Source: Thiotrichales bacterium HSG1 (GTDB lineage Bacteria; Pseudomonadota; Gammaproteobacteria; Beggiatoales; Beggiatoaceae). From it: DNA of 30,590 bases. The stretch lies in the NCBI GenBank assembly GCA_030378125.1, contig JAUCGN010000001.1, positions 1-30,590 on the forward strand. The letters are read 5' to 3'. Shown one piece after another: positions 529-10,592 of the stretch. The position numbers and the translations under genes were made by a program. The first letter of the stretch is position 1, and each line of letters opens with the position of its first letter. The notes below the pieces were generated by a model. It was not told where the DNA came from, ran no database searches, and was given only the letters and a program-made list of their open reading frames with translations.

Positions 529-759
529 ATGAATGTAAATATTATGCAATTACCTCCAGAACAAGAATTATTCACTCCATTAGCTAAATTTTTAGAATCT
601 GATTCAAAATCATTGTTGAAACAGGTTAATTTACAACAACATCCAGAACGGATAACGGCTAATACGGTTAAGTTACCTAATAGTATTTTTAACTTACAAC
701 GGGCTTTGTCAGAAACTAAAAAATCTGATATTGAGCTAATTAAAAACTATGTGAGTTAG
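529..759 (+). CDS. Small hypothetical protein, first gene of the CHAT cassette
   Basis: I do not recognise this 76-residue protein. It is charged and probably helical, with no signal peptide or membrane segment. An alternative start is the ATG at 544, giving a protein that begins MQLPPEQELF. Neither start has a clear ribosome binding site. The gene ends 11 bases before a GTG-started winged-helix-like gene, which itself overlaps the longest frame of the CHAT gene. The three therefore look like one transcription unit. By position it could be an accessory or partner of the CHAT-STAND protein, such as an adaptor or regulator. That is inference from linkage only. Confidence 0.5.
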   Translation: MNVNIMQLPPEQELFTPLAKFLESDSKSLLKQVNLQQHPERITANTVKLPNSIFNLQRALSETKKSDIELIKNYVS

Positions 760-770
760 ATTGGAAAATT

Positions 771-1094
771 GTGTTAGATATTGTTTTAACTAGCAGTTTT
801 CCTACAACTTCTTTTGTGATTATATTTTTAAGCAAGGTGATTAAATCAGTAAAAATTGAAGTAACAGAAACTGATGCTTTAGTTTTATATACCTTATATT
901 ATATTGGTGAAAGTGGTTTACCGGGTCGAGCTATTTTATTGGAAAATTTCCATAAATCTAAATTGCTCAAGGATGTTGATGCTGATAAATTGCAACAGAG
1001 TTTGCAGAATTTAGTAGAATTAAAATGTATTCGATTAGAAACTGATAGAGTTATTTTAACCGAGCAGATTGTGTTTAATAAGGTTTATGATTGA
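771..1094 (+). CDS. Winged-helix-like small protein, second gene of the CHAT cassette
   Basis: This 107-residue protein starts at GTG 771, with GGAA six bases upstream. From about residue 30 it has the look of a winged helix: a helix around TDALVLYTLYYIGESG, a GLPGRAILLENF segment, a helix with DADKLQQSLQNLVELKCI, then a beta wing RLETDRVILTEQIVF. The N-terminal 25 residues are hydrophobic and may form a helix. I recognise no named family. It could bind DNA as cassette regulator, or serve as a protein-interaction domain for the CHAT-STAND protein. Its stop at 1092-1094 overlaps a TTG that would begin the longest CHAT frame. The 11-base gap from the preceding gene and the shared strand suggest co-transcription. 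Confidence 0.55.
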   Translation: MLDIVLTSSFPTTSFVIIFLSKVIKSVKIEVTETDALVLYTLYYIGESGLPGRAILLENFHKSKLLKDVDADKLQQSLQNLVELKCIRLETDRVILTEQIVFNKVYD

Positions 1095-1112
1095 TAAAAA
1101 ACAGACCAAACC

Positions 1113-1145
1113 AGACCTTCCAGGTTTCCAAAACCTGGAAGGTCT
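1113..1145. repeat. Perfect 33-bp palindromic repeat upstream of the CHAT gene
   Basis: Two perfect 15-base arms, 1113-1127 and 1131-1145, are separated by the three bases CCA. The arm begins AGACCTTCCAGG. Elements of this type are scattered between genes in several bacterial genomes. This one lies between the winged-helix gene and ATG 1163. It would be translated only if the CHAT gene started at TTG 1091, which argues for ATG 1163. A degraded relative (CCTTCCAG then AGACCTG) appears at 20767-20790. Confidence 0.85.
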
Positions 1146-1162
1146 TAAAATCGAGAATCAAC

Positions 1163-4100
1163 ATGACAGACATACACAAAGAACCAGATTACCTTGAGAT
1201 TCCTGATGATTTATTGGAGCAGAAACCAAATTTAAAGCATTTGGCTAATGAATTGACACGGGCTTATGCTGCTAGGGATAAATTGGTGACTGAAGATGAT
1301 TTGCAGGCAATGGGGCAGGCTTTATGGTCGGGGGAAATAACTCCACCACAAGATAAAATTCGACCGGTGATTATTGCTAGTAATAAGGCGGAAATTCAGG
1401 CGTTGCCGTGGGAATGTTTGTATCATCCAGATTATAAATTTTTGGCTAAGGAATTGGGTTTTACTCTATCTCGTTGTTTGCCAGCAATAAAAACTGAGAC
1501 TAATTTAACTGCTGGGCCATTGCGAGTATTATTGTTTTCTTCATTGCCGGATGATGTATCACGGTTGGACATTGAGGAGGAACAGGCTCAGGTTTTAATT
1601 GCGTTGAATGAATGGGTGCAACAAGGCTGGGTGAAATTGGATGTGTTGGATGATGGCCGTTATCAAACTTTGGTAGATAAATTACAGGAAAATCAATATC
1701 ATTTGGTGTTTTTGAGTGGGCATGGTCAATATAATGCCGAACAGAAATATGGGGTGTTTTATTTTGAAGATCAGCAGGGTAAAGCAGAGCCAGTTGTAGA
1801 TAGTGAGTTAGCTAAGGCATTTATTGGGCGAGGAGTGCAATGTGTGGTGTTGTCGGCTTGTGAATCAGCGAAGGCTACGACTGGTTTGGCTCAGGCTTTG
1901 GTGCAGCAGGGGATAACGCATGTGGTCGGGATGCGGGAATCTATTTTGGATAAGGCTGGAATTGCATTTGCGAAGAGTTTTTGTGGCAGGATTGGTCGTA
2001 AGGAGCGAGTTGATATTGCGGTGCAAGCGGCTAGGCGAGCTATATTAACTGGGGTTAAGGATACTGTTACTTTACGGGATTTAAACAAGGATTTGTCTCA
2101 TTCGGCTGAGTTGAGCCAAAATCAATGGTGTTTGCCGTTGTTGTTTAGTCAAGATTTAACTGCTCCGTTGGTGGATTGGGATTTTACGCCCCAGCCAGTG
2201 AATGTTGAATATAAATTGCGGAATATTTGGGAAGGAATTCCAGATTTTGCGACTGAGCGTTTTATTGGTCGGCGGTCGGAGTTGCGAGAGTTGGGCAGTC
2301 GGTTTGTGCATGGTTCGCAAGCTCAATTGTTAATTACGGGTCCGGGTGGACAGGGTAAAACTGCGTTAGCAACTCGGTTAGCTCAACGGTTGGAGCATGA
2401 TGGTTATACGGTGGTGACTTATGTGGCGAAACCAGAAAATAGTTGGCAAAGCTTTCTTTTTAAATTAAAAACCAAAGTTTTAACTGGGGAATTTAAGGAG
2501 GAATTTAAGCAGAATCGGGAATTTTGTGAGACTCCAGAGCAGGAAGCCGAAGTTTTATTAGATTTATTATTACGCCAAACTAAAGGCAAGGTGTTATTTT
2601 TCTTTGATAATTTAGAGTCAATTCAGGATGCGAATAGTAGAGAATTAAACCATTCGGTATTGAATATTTGGCTAACGGAAATAACTCGTGCAGGTAGCAA
2701 GTTATTGTTGACTTCTCGGTATAGGTTGCCGGGTTGGGATGGTGAACGGCATCATGCGTTACAAAAGGCTAATTTCTTTGATTTTACGTACTATTTACAA
2801 CGGCAAAATTTGGCTTTGGAGCATGATTTACAGCGTTTATATCAAGATTTAAATGGTAATTTTCGAGGGGTGATATTCTTTTTAACCGCTCAAGCAAAAA
2901 ATCCAGAGTTTAAGCAGAGTTTGCAGCAAGCTCAACAGGATTTATATGTGGATATGGCGATTGCGGCTTTGTTTGAGTTGTTGACGGAAAGTGAACAGCA
3001 GTTGTTAGCTCGCTTGCCAGCTTATCAGTCGCCAGTGCCATTAGCTGGAATTGAGGCTTTGCAGTCACAGGCTTTGATTCAGAATTTGTTGGATTATTCG
3101 TTGTTGGAAGTGCAGCTTGATTTGTATTTAAATACTGAGATTTATCAAGTTTCATCTTTGGTTAAGGATTGGTTACAGCCGAATATTGGTAAGGAGGATT
3201 ATGCGGAAGCAGCTCGGTATCAAAAGCAGTTGTTTTATACTGATAAGGATACTGTTGGTCAGGCTTTGGATGTGCATCAGGCGTTGTTGTTAGCGGAGGA
3301 AGTTGAAGAAGCACGGCGATTTGCGTTGGATGAAATTGTGTCTCGTTTTGATATGGCTGGCTTGTATCATGATATTTTGACTGATTGGTTACCTGATATT
3401 TTGCAGACAACGGATGAGAAGTTGAAAGGTGATGCTTTAAATAAAATTGGTGAAATTCGTTTTTACATAGGAGATTACAATACAGCTCTATCCTATTTGG
3501 AACAATCTCTTTTGATAACACGTGAAATTGGTGATAAACAAGGCGAGGGAACTGCCCTCAATAATATTTCCCAAATCTATGATGCAAGAGGCGACTATAA
3601 TACAACACTATCTTATTTGAAACAATCGCTTTTGATAAGACGTGAAATTGGTGATAAAAAAGGTGAGGGAACTACTTCATCCAATATTGGCAGTATTTAT
3701 TATTCAAGAAGTGATTACGACAAAGCACTGGAATATTTTGAACAAACAATAACAATATTTCGTGAAATTGGTGATAAAGCAAGTGAAGGAACTATCCTCA
3801 ATAATATTTCTGCCATATTTCAAGCCAAAGGAGACTATGACAAAGCACTATCTTATTTGGAACAATCGTTGACAATAGTACGTGAAATTGGTGATAAAAA
3901 AGTTGAGGGAACTATCCTCAATAATTTTTCCCAAATATTTCAAGCTAAAGGCGACTATGATATAGCCCTATCCTATCTGGAACAGTCGCTGGCAATAGTA
4001 CGTGAAATTGGTGATAAACAAGGTGAGGGAAGAATTCTCAATAATATTTTTCTAATATTTCAAGCTAAAGGAGACTATGATACAGCACTATCTTATTTGG

Positions 4101-4585
4101 AACAATCGTTGACAATAGTACGTGAAATTGGTGATAAACAGAGTGAGGGAACTATCCTCAATAATTTTTCTCAAATATTTCAAGCCAAAGGAGACTATGA
4201 TATAGCCCTATCTTATTTGGAACAATCGTTGACAATAGTACGTGAAATTGGTGATAAAAAAGTTGAGGGAGTTATCCTCAACAATATTTTTCTAACATTT
4301 CAAGCCAAAGGAGACTACGACACAGCACTGTCTTATTTGGAACAATCGTTGACAATAGTACGTGAAATTGGTGATACCAGTGGTTTATGTAATGCTTTAT
4401 TTAATATTGCCCATATCCACCTAGCCAAACAAGAACCAGAACAAGCCAGAGAAAAATTCGTCCAAGCCTATAAAATAGCCTCTGAAATTGGTTTACATCA
4501 AGTCCTCCAAGCCCTAGAACAACTTGCTAATGATGGGGGAAAAGATGGATTAAACTTTTGGAAGGAAATGGCGGGGAAAATGTAG
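1163..4585 (+). CDS. CHAT protease - STAND NTPase - TPR repeat protein
   Basis: This 1140-residue protein has three parts. Residues about 60-330 are a CHAT (caspase-like) domain with the catalytic pair intact: His187 in LSGHG and Cys233 in VLSACES. Residues about 370-560 are a STAND-type P-loop NTPase with Walker A GPGGQGKT at 393-400, Walker B VLFFFDN at 477-483 and a downstream LLLTSRYRLPG sensor strand. A linker follows, and from about residue 756 there are nine TPR units, eight of them in a strict 40-residue period. Known STAND proteins oligomerise when the repeat region senses a trigger, and CHAT domains are peptidases. I infer a signal-activated protease acting in the cytosol, perhaps in defence or programmed cell death. 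ATG 1163 is preferred over TTG 1091 because the extra 24 residues would translate a perfect palindrome. Two small genes sit directly upstream. The specific trigger and substrate cannot be read from sequence. Confidence 0.9.
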   Translation: MTDIHKEPDYLEIPDDLLEQKPNLKHLANELTRAYAARDKLVTEDDLQAMGQALWSGEITPPQDKIRPVIIASNKAEIQALPWECLYHPDYKFLAKELGFTLSRCLPAIKTETNLTAGPLRVLLFSSLPDDVSRLDIEEEQAQVLIALNEWVQQGWVKLDVLDDGRYQTLVDKLQENQYHLVFLSGHGQYNAEQKYGVFYFEDQQGKAEPVVDSELAKAFIGRGVQCVVLSACESAKATTGLAQALVQQGITHVVGMRESILDKAGIAFAKSFCGRIGRKERVDIAVQAARRAILTGVKDTVTLRDLNKDLSHSAELSQNQWCLPLLFSQDLTAPLVDWDFTPQPVNVEYKLRNIWEGIPDFATERFIGRRSELRELGSRFVHGSQAQLLITGPGGQGKTALATRLAQRLEHDGYTVVTYVAKPENSWQSFLFKLKTKVLTGEFKEEFKQNREFCETPEQEAEVLLDLLLRQTKGKVLFFFDNLESIQDANSRELNHSVLNIWLTEITRAGSKLLLTSRYRLPGWDGERHHALQKANFFDFTYYLQRQNLALEHDLQRLYQDLNGNFRGVIFFLTAQAKNPEFKQSLQQAQQDLYVDMAIAALFELLTESEQQLLARLPAYQSPVPLAGIEALQSQALIQNLLDYSLLEVQLDLYLNTEIYQVSSLVKDWLQPNIGKEDYAEAARYQKQLFYTDKDTVGQALDVHQALLLAEEVEEARRFALDEIVSRFDMAGLYHDILTDWLPDILQTTDEKLKGDALNKIGEIRFYIGDYNTALSYLEQSLLITREIGDKQGEGTALNNISQIYDARGDYNTTLSYLKQSLLIRREIGDKKGEGTTSSNIGSIYYSRSDYDKALEYFEQTITIFREIGDKASEGTILNNISAIFQAKGDYDKALSYLEQSLTIVREIGDKKVEGTILNNFSQIFQAKGDYDIALSYLEQSLAIVREIGDKQGEGRILNNIFLIFQAKGDYDTALSYLEQSLTIVREIGDKQSEGTILNNFSQIFQAKGDYDIALSYLEQSLTIVREIGDKKVEGVILNNIFLTFQAKGDYDTALSYLEQSLTIVREIGDTSGLCNALFNIAHIHLAKQEPEQAREKFVQAYKIASEIGLHQVLQALEQLANDGGKDGLNFWKEMAGKM
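3428..4380 (+). repeat. 120-bp tandem repeat array encoding TPRs
   Basis: The 16-base string CGTGAAATTGGTGATA recurs exactly every 120 bases, at 3521, 3641, 3761, 3881, 4001, 4121, 4241 and 4361. Each period encodes a 40-residue TPR with consensus ILNN-x-FQAKGDYD-x-ALSYLEQSLTIVREIGDK. The units between about 3780 and 4370 are nearly identical at DNA level, which points to recent amplification or gene conversion. The first three units are more diverged. Confidence 0.92.
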
Positions 4586-4963
4586 AGTTTTGAACAGGAT
4601 TGTGCAGGATTAAAGGATAGACAGGATTTTAAAATCGCTTTTGATTTAATCTTGTCCATCTTTATAATCCTGCATAATCCTGTTCAAACATTTAATATCG
4701 TTCATATCCAACTCGCCAACGATTCGGGAAAAGATGGATTAAACTATTGGCAGGAGATGGCGGAGAAAATGTAGAGTTTTGAACAAGATTGTGCAGGATT
4801 AAAGGATAGACAGGATTTTAAAATCGCTTTTGATTTAATCTTGTCCATCTTTATAATCCTGCATAATCCTGTTCAAACATTTAATATCGTTCATATCCAA
4901 CTCGCCAACGATTCGGGACAAGATGGATTAAACTTTTGGCAGGAGATGGCGGGGAGAATGTAG
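4541..4963 (+). repeat. 189-bp tandem duplication of the CHAT gene 3' end
   Basis: The last codons of the CHAT gene recur downstream with a period of 189 bases: the stop TAG falls at 4583-4585, 4772-4774 and 4961-4963. The second and third copies read NIVHIQLANDSG then DGLNYWQEMAEKM or its equivalent. They appear to join the HIHLA segment of the CHAT C-terminus directly to the NDGGKDGLNFW end, so they are internally deleted remnants. They carry no start and are not expected to be translated. Each 189-bp unit also contains a long inverted repeat. Confidence 0.85.
4592..4685. repeat. Long imperfect inverted repeat inside the first 189-bp unit
   Basis: Arms 4592-4611 and 4666-4685 are 20 bases long with one mismatch, beginning GAACAGGATT and ending AATCCTGTTC. 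Inner segments around GACAGGATT and AATCTTGTC extend the pairing. A second copy lies at 4781-4874. The AGGATT / AATCCT motif is shared with the palindrome at 11096-11278, so these probably belong to one dispersed family. Confidence 0.8.
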
Positions 4964-4989
4964 GGTTATGCTTCGTTAACCTAATCTAC
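4960..4989. repeat. Short palindromic repeat with TGCTTCG loop
   Basis: GTAG-GGTTA-TGCTTCG-TTAACC...CTAC forms an imperfect hairpin. It overlaps the stop codon of the third CHAT remnant. It resembles widely scattered palindromes built around a GCTTCG loop in other bacteria. That resemblance is from memory and was not searched. Confidence 0.55.

Positions 4990-7375: not shown

Positions 7376-8213
<838 letters not shown>

Positions 8214-8371: not shown

Positions 8372-10592
<2,221 letters not shown>

What the first reader, a model, noticed from the sequence alone, without database searches (positions are those of the whole stretch)
529..4585. Three-gene CHAT-STAND-TPR cassette as a possible defence or cell-death system
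A 1140-residue protein joins an intact His/Cys CHAT protease, a Walker A/B STAND NTPase and nine TPRs. It sits behind two small genes, one winged-helix-like, in a tightly packed order. CHAT proteases and STAND sensors are each known in bacterial immunity. Linkage with these two small proteins is not a layout I recognise. The partners could be a regulator, adaptor or protease substrate.
Basis: partly seen in the sequence, partly recalled or inferred. Interest (0 to 1): 0.75.

Follow-up and report, generated by a model that had tools for sequence, protein, structure and literature searches.

The report
Caspase-type switch with split partner gene
Filamentous sulfur bacteria carry a two-gene unit in which a small protein of unknown function is encoded just ahead of a caspase-like enzyme with a molecular switch and a sensor arm; in this genome the small gene is cut in two, so it looked like two genes.

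Summary
The large protein is as described: an intact His187/Cys233 CHAT domain, a P-loop NTPase and nine 40-residue TPRs (ATG at 1163, 1140 aa). The "two small genes" are halves of one ~183-aa gene whose reading frame shifts near 745-770; it is intact in Candidatus Halobeggiatoa sp. HSG11 and in P0005. Whether the break is real or an assembly error cannot be told here.

The proposed linkage test came out positive for that single gene. Of 20 loci of the family in 14 of 42 same-family genomes, 13 lie 5' and same-strand of a caspase-clan NTPase gene (10 directly, 3 with small ORFs between). Those genes are of three types: CHAT type A (window), CHAT type B, and Peptidase_C14-NACHT-PPR. Only about 3% of CHAT/C14 matches in those genomes have the partner; 5 of 6 related CHAT loci examined lack it. 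Sampled genomes outside the family gave no match. The partner ends in a predicted winged helix with an acidic third helix, suggesting protein contact rather than DNA binding.

Best reading: a two-gene conflict/cell-death switch organised like EACC1-caspase systems, with an unrelated partner. Defence itself is untested; only the downstream side of the locus is visible and shows no defence genes.

The parts
529..759 (+). N-terminal piece of the split partner gene (ORF 76 aa; the homologous start is the ATG at 544, MQLPP)
   Evidence: 93% identical to the N-terminal part of one 183-aa gene in G004; P0005 reads through both pieces
771..1094 (+). C-terminal piece of the same partner gene (winged-helix half). 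The GTG at 771 is not a true start: homology in this frame runs on upstream, so the frame shifts between about 745 and 770
   Evidence: 92% identical to the C-terminal part of the G004 gene; upstream homology in the same frame; winged helix in AF2 models of relatives
1113..1145 (.). 33-bp palindrome between partner gene and CHAT gene; one further exact copy in the genome
1163..4585 (+). CHAT - P-loop (STAND-type) NTPase - nine-TPR protein, 1140 aa
1307..2062 (+). CHAT protease domain
   Evidence: PF12770 match over its cut-off
1721..1723 (+). His187 codon (SGHG motif)
1859..1861 (+). Cys233 codon (LSACES motif)
2258..2638 (+). P-loop NTPase (AAA_16 match, aa 366-492; Walker A at aa 393-400, FFFDN at aa 479)
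3419..4498 (+). nine 40-aa TPR units (aa 753-1112); the HSG11 homologue has six
4520..4970 (+). tail of the CHAT gene plus an inverted-repeat element, repeated with a 189-bp period (73-nt core three times; the copies after 4585 lie beyond the stop codon)
   Evidence: protein-level echoes at 4706-4771 and 4895-4960

Best explanation
This is a two-gene module of Beggiatoaceae. A ~180-210-aa partner protein is encoded just 5' of, and probably co-expressed with, a caspase-clan protease fused to a STAND-type NTPase and a repeat array. Most likely the large protein is a resting switch: the TPR (or PPR) arm senses a trigger, nucleotide-dependent assembly brings protease domains together, and the CHAT or caspase domain cleaves targets that arrest or kill the cell. 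The partner most likely works by protein contact, through an N-terminal alpha+beta region and a C-terminal winged helix with an acidic third helix. It would act as an adaptor or gate on the NTPase-protease (or its assembly), not as a DNA-binding repressor. Shown: the domains, the intact catalytic motifs, the gene linkage, the exchange of the large gene, the split of the partner in this window. Inferred: co-expression, the complex, activation, the cellular outcome. In this genome the partner would not be made whole if the break is real.
For: One gene, not two. 13 of 20 partner loci are 5' and same-strand of a CHAT or C14 NTPase gene: 10 with no listed ORF of 70-80 aa or more between, 3 with two or three small ORFs between. 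The frames overlap by 4 nt in G013 and are 2 nt apart in G057. The large genes form three types: A v B about 25% over CHAT and P-loop, with weak TPR matches; no BLASTP match of C to A or B at 1e-3. So linkage outlived replacement of the protease gene. Within type B, partners 82% identical sit by CHATs only 44% identical (G060a v G058, first 700 aa). His and Cys motifs are present in the partnered genes read: 2 type A, 2 type C, 7 single-ORF type B and G057's two pieces; for G022's split gene only the Cys piece was read. Window v G004 dN/dS (NG86) about 0.08 and 0.25 for the two partner pieces, 0.12 for CHAT aa 1-750. Winged helix, residues 111-180, block pLDDT 80-91. Net charge of its third helix: -1 to -4 in the 4 type A members, -4 to -8 in the other 11. 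Analogous 5'-component + caspase systems: PMC7159879, section 33.
Against: 7 of 20 partner loci are not beside such a gene; 4 of these 7 are truncated, split or decayed. Of six related CHAT loci without a partner that were fetched, 5 truly lack one and one (G058:C42) is cut by the contig end, so the partner is not obligatory. No partner was found in the nine own-genome stretches with other CHAT, C14 or TPR genes either. About 97% of CHAT/C14 matches in the 12 genomes lack it. The N-terminal half is modelled poorly (block pLDDT 42-71), and no complex could be modelled. In type B the partner and CHAT distances correlate only at r 0.38, though just 3 of 5040 permutations reach that, as shared ancestry alone could explain. 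Nothing here shows defence or killing.
Confidence: 0.5

Rival explanations
1. The partner is the protease's substrate: the activated CHAT or caspase cuts it, releasing an active half (as a gasdermin or Csx30 is cut by its linked protease; those parallels are recalled, not looked up).
For: Tight 5' linkage to proteases of two families with intact catalytic motifs; a two-part protein with a variable linker between the N-terminal region and the winged helix.
Against: No conserved motif in the linker that could be a shared cleavage site (read by eye); CHAT and C14 proteases of different specificity would need different sites in one family.
Confidence: 0.22
2. The partner is a transcriptional regulator of the module, a classical winged-helix DNA-binding protein.
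Confidence: 0.12
3. Linkage without function: an orphan small gene that hitchhikes with CHAT genes in repeat-rich genomes; the pair is decaying.
For: The partner is split here and in G025; truncated or decayed copies occur in G060:C15, G022:C283 (second copy) and G029; CHAT genes are split in G022 and G057.
Against: Purifying selection on both pieces until recently. Linkage to three large-gene types: by my arithmetic the chance neighbourhood rate is about 0.8% (470 matches in some 62 Mb, taking about one gene per kb) against 13 of 20 seen.
Confidence: 0.1
4. A separate question from the three rivals above: the break in the window is an assembly or sequencing error, and the partner is whole in the living cell.
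For: The contig is from a fragmented MAG (63% complete, 457 contigs); both pieces show purifying selection.
Against: A copy in two ORFs also occurs in another genome of the family (G025), so real decay is plausible.
Confidence: 0.45

Closest known systems
EACC1 two-gene caspase systems (Kaur et al. 2020, PMC7159879, 'System 4'; section 33 read)
   Same: Small 5' component of unproven role; 3' gene with an N-terminal caspase-superfamily peptidase and variable C-terminal domains including STAND NTPases and repeats; reported as associated with a multicellular habit.
   Different: The 5' component is not EACC1: none of the 8 PF19953 matches in 12 genomes fell on a partner gene, profile comparison gave probability 0.3%, and a single TM helix is not clear. 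The protease is CHAT in 11 of 13 pairs. EACC1 genes followed by a caspase-like gene (by eye) do occur in the same genomes.
TRADD-N / EACC2 caspase gene pairs (Kaur et al. 2021, PMC8195603, section 9 read)
   Same: Two-gene neighbourhood with a caspase protein; some TRADD-N genes neighbour STAND NTPase-TPR genes.
   Different: No Pfam model matched the partner at useful significance, so no link to TRADD-N is shown; here the partner ends in a winged helix.
TPR-CHAT proteases such as Csx29 of type III-E CRISPR (recalled)
   Same: CHAT protease and TPR in one protein, linked to small partner genes.
   Different: Domain order (CHAT first here), an NTPase in the middle, and no Cas family among the 20 downstream ORFs scanned.
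bacterial NACHT / Avs-type STAND defence proteins (recalled)
   Same: N-terminal effector, central NTPase, C-terminal repeat sensor.
   Different: PADLOC matches were to repeat parts (TPR E 3.1e-51, PDC-S39 E 5.5e-7 over aa 846-911) or weak; partner gene present.
metacaspase expansion of Candidatus Thiomargarita nelsonii (Flood et al. 2016, PMC4853749; abstract and passages seen)
   Same: Same family, Beggiatoaceae; 59 metacaspase genes reported.
   Different: The words CHAT and TPR occur 0 times in its main text; partner genes are not mentioned in the passages shown.

Membership tests
CHAT peptidases (PF12770) | Profile match over the cut-off | tested here: met
   111.1 bits v cut-off 24
CHAT peptidases (PF12770) | Catalytic His-Cys pair | tested here: met
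   His187 in SGHG and Cys233 in LSACES; activity not tested
STAND NTPases | P-loop NTPase with Walker A and B between effector and repeats | tested here: met
   AAA_16 40.2 v 32.6 bits, NACHT 26.9 v 26.7 bits, GPGGQGKT, FFFDN
EACC1 two-gene system | 5' gene encodes an EACC1 domain | tested here: not met
   8 PF19953 matches in 5 of 12 genomes hit no partner gene; hhalign probability 0.3%
EACC1 two-gene system | Conserved single TM helix in the 5' protein | tested here: inconclusive
   Best 19-residue hydropathy 1.13-2.06 over 15 members; 14 of 15 at 1.8 or less
EACC1 two-gene system | 3' gene with a caspase-superfamily peptidase first and variable C-terminal domains | tested here: met
   CHAT or C14 at the N-terminus; TPR or PPR arms
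TRADD-N / EACC2 systems | 5' gene encodes a TRADD-N domain | tested here: inconclusive
   No significant Pfam match in 15 members; presence of a TRADD-N model in the library was not checked
Type III-E CRISPR TPR-CHAT | Adjacent Cas genes | tested here: inconclusive
   No Cas family among 20 downstream ORFs at 1e-5; the upstream flank is only 528 nt
Known anti-phage systems (PADLOC) | System-specific model match over most of the protein | tested here: not met
   TPR (E 3.1e-51), PDC-S39 (E 5.5e-7, aa 846-911 of the TPR region) and weaker partial matches such as SAVED_CHAT E 0.0031; for the 15 partner proteins only two matches at E 0.012 and 0.018
Defence or cell-death system | Phage protection or protease-dependent toxicity | not testable with these tools
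   needs experiment
Winged-helix DNA-binding regulators | Winged-helix fold | tested here: met
Winged-helix DNA-binding regulators | Recognition helix suited to DNA contact | tested here: inconclusive
   net charge -1 to -8 in 15 of 15 (-1 to -4 in type A), which speaks against it but is not proof

The most novel reading that the evidence does not exclude
A protein family for which no family model was found acts, in giant and filamentous sulfur bacteria, as a shared adaptor for caspase-clan switch proteins: it has been paired at least three times with different protease-NTPase-repeat proteins (CHAT and C14), and gates their assembly or activity by protein contact, in an immune or cell-death pathway.
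Probability: 0.4. Interest if true: 0.7.

Novelty: new variant of a known kind. Interest (0 to 1): 0.52.

Why it matters
Caspase-like switch proteins abound in these bacteria (470 CHAT and C14 matches in 12 genomes), yet what holds them off or turns them on is, to my knowledge, mostly unknown. A small partner that stays while the protease gene is exchanged (CHAT or C14) points to a shared control surface on the NTPase-protease unit, and gives a compact two-protein system in which to test it. It also shows how a frame break can make one gene look like part of a new three-gene cassette.

Tried and rejected
Rejected: the three-gene cassette (the two small ORFs are one gene). Rejected: the small ORFs as random ORFs (both pieces conserved, dN/dS below 1). 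Rejected: EACC1 membership. Tried without result: Pfam, PADLOC and PDB-sequence searches for the partner; NCBIfam for the two window pieces; Foldseek in PDB and viral models, no match at E 0.001 or better; phage and plasmid records, no match with P0007; viral contigs, none by one peptide pattern; genome contigs gave 2 loci by one peptide pattern; sampled class (2 of 369 genomes: the own genome and G025 of the same family) and phylum (1 of 398, the own genome); one Rfam scan of the window, none; sequence search of the CHAT-NTPase part in PDB, only weak P-loop matches. The search with the 76-aa piece found only itself, but that search admits only proteins up to 1.75 times the query's length, so P0005 could not appear. 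That the 42-genome family is Beggiatoaceae is inferred from the named records.

Rows dropped: P0006 (fragment) was left out of A2 and A4. A4 holds 15 members and leaves out the window pieces, G057, G060:C68, G022:C27 and the decayed copies. The mirror-distance test used 7 of 9 type B loci (the two with split CHAT genes were left out). In the partner tree the long branch of G013 makes its place unsure. ORF tables list ORFs of 70 or 80 aa and more and drop nested ones. VIA-align covers mainly residues 32-183; no statement is made that the N-terminal region is a new fold. A two-chain model was not possible with the tools.

Literature: every paper search and every DOI look-up failed by time-out, as did one PMC look-up (109). 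So I make no claim that the module is absent from print. Seen: PMC7159879 (outline with abstract, term passages, section 33, part 1 of section 35), PMC8195603 (outline with abstract, term passages, section 9), PMC4853749 (outline with abstract, term passages). PMC7096375 was a wrong guess of an id.

Full report
What is in the window. The window is contig C99 of a fragmented metagenome-assembled genome, 63% complete, 457 contigs. From this and the other named records (Thioploca, Albibeggiatoa, Thiotrichaceae bacterium IS1) I infer that the 42 same-family genomes are Beggiatoaceae. The large gene is real: ATG 1163 to 4585, 1140 aa, CHAT, P-loop NTPase and TPR by Pfam, catalytic motifs intact, nine TPR units at exactly 40-aa spacing.

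The two small genes are one. A protein search with the 107-aa piece found P0005, 183 aa, 80% identical to it, whose first part reads as the 76-aa piece. In G004 both pieces match in one open frame of 210 codons. In the window the two pieces lie in different frames, and the frame of the second piece continues to match upstream of its GTG. So one gene is broken by a frame shift between about 745 and 770. Intact copies exist. Substitutions between window and G004 show purifying selection in both pieces (dN/dS 0.023/0.27 and 0.045/0.18) as in the CHAT gene (0.0155/0.131 for aa 1-750), so the break is recent or an artefact.

Is the linkage real? A profile of six partner proteins was searched through the 42 same-family genomes held: 14 of 42 match, the own genome included. 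The 22 rows are 20 loci. In 13 of 20 the partner lies 5' and on the same strand as a CHAT or C14 NTPase gene. Ten have no listed ORF between: window, G004, G009, G013, G030, G001, G060:C68, G022:C283, G058:C229 and G057. Three have two or three small ORFs between: G005, G061 and G060:C343. The remaining seven are G058:C66, G022:C27, G058:C762, G060:C15, G025:C94, a decayed second copy in G022:C283 and a trace in G029; the last four named are truncated, split or riddled with stops. In the 12 genomes with such pairs there are 244 CHAT and 226 C14 matches, so 13 of 470, about 3%, are paired. At that density a random gene would stand 5' of one in about 0.8% of cases (my arithmetic, about one gene per kb).

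Three kinds of large gene. BLASTP among the large proteins shows type A (window and G004), type B (the Thioploca-like CHAT-NACHT-TPR genes, in two subgroups about 44% identical) and type C (G009 and G013: Peptidase_C14, NACHT, PPR repeats). A and B align over CHAT and P-loop at about 25%, with weak TPR matches; C matches neither at 1e-3. The partner tree has A as one clade (100/99) and B as one clade (88/93, below the starred level, with two orphan partners inside); the two C loci do not group together, but G013 is a long branch. Within B, partners 82% identical accompany CHATs 44% identical. So the large gene has been exchanged behind the partner, which argues for a functional tie to caspase-clan NTPase proteins as a class. 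Against an obligatory tie: six related CHAT loci without a detected partner were fetched. Five lack one (G013:C55, G030:C5, G058:C247, related to type A; G009:C117, G022:C326, related to type B); the sixth, G058:C42, is cut by the contig end. The profile also found no partner in nine own-genome stretches with other CHAT, C14 or TPR genes.

How it probably works. By analogy with STAND proteins (established knowledge, and the discussion in PMC7159879, section 35 part 1), the repeat arm senses, the NTPase assembles, the protease fires. The partner as adaptor or gate is the reading I think most likely (about one in two); substrate is next. The TPR number differs between window and HSG11 (9 v 6) while residues 1-750 are 97% identical, so the sensor arm is the fast-changing part.

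Comparison with the known. The organisation (small 5' component, 3' caspase-superfamily protein with NTPase and repeats) is that of EACC1 systems (PMC7159879 section 33). The same genomes also carry EACC1 genes, 5 of 12 with a match and 4 over the cut-off, the own genome included; in L102 and L103 a gene that looks caspase-like by eye directly follows. But the partner here is not EACC1. I therefore call it a new variant of a known kind, with an unrelated partner family.

Limits. Paper search was down, so novelty against print could not be checked. No complex was modelled. The defence role rests on family knowledge. Only the downstream surroundings are visible: of 20 ORFs scanned, 15 match ordinary families (ThiC, ThiF, MoaA-like, GrpE, DprA, GGDEF/EAL and others) and 5 none, so there is no sign of a defence island on that side.

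Noticed in passing
window 4520-4970: The 3' end of the CHAT gene and a 24-nt inverted-repeat element are repeated with a 189-bp period after the stop codon, leaving echoes of the C-terminus beyond the gene.
   Followed up: partly
window 3419-4498: TPR array of nine units against six in the HSG11 homologue; units 4 to 8 are very alike, as if recently copied.
   Followed up: partly
L065 7977-8647; L067 938-1665; L070 4893-5946: Small ORFs that look like toxin-antitoxin pairs (recalled resemblance: UPF0175 and PIN-like) sit between partner and CHAT gene in three loci.
   Followed up: no
L030 5693-8644; L031 6734-9454: Bacterial Peptidase_C14-NACHT proteins with C-terminal PPR repeats (PF13041), a repeat better known from organelles (recalled).
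   Followed up: no
L100 1462-1821; L102 1465-3065; L103 1-1746: EACC1 genes (PF19953) in the same genomes, own genome included, with a gene that looks caspase-like by eye directly after in L102 and L103.
   Followed up: partly
L072 1053-1674; L073 4170-4424; L064 about 9545-9766; L068 591-4361: Further broken pieces of these modules: split or truncated partner genes and a CHAT gene in two ORFs, pointing to frequent decay or assembly trouble.
   Followed up: partly
L029 9468-9662: The spacer between partner and CHAT gene in HSG11 holds a different inverted repeat from that in the window, so the spacer seems to collect small palindromic elements.
   Followed up: no
window 7764-8213: Deaminase-family ORF (PF14437, PF00383), about 3 kb from the CHAT gene; probably unrelated.
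   Followed up: no
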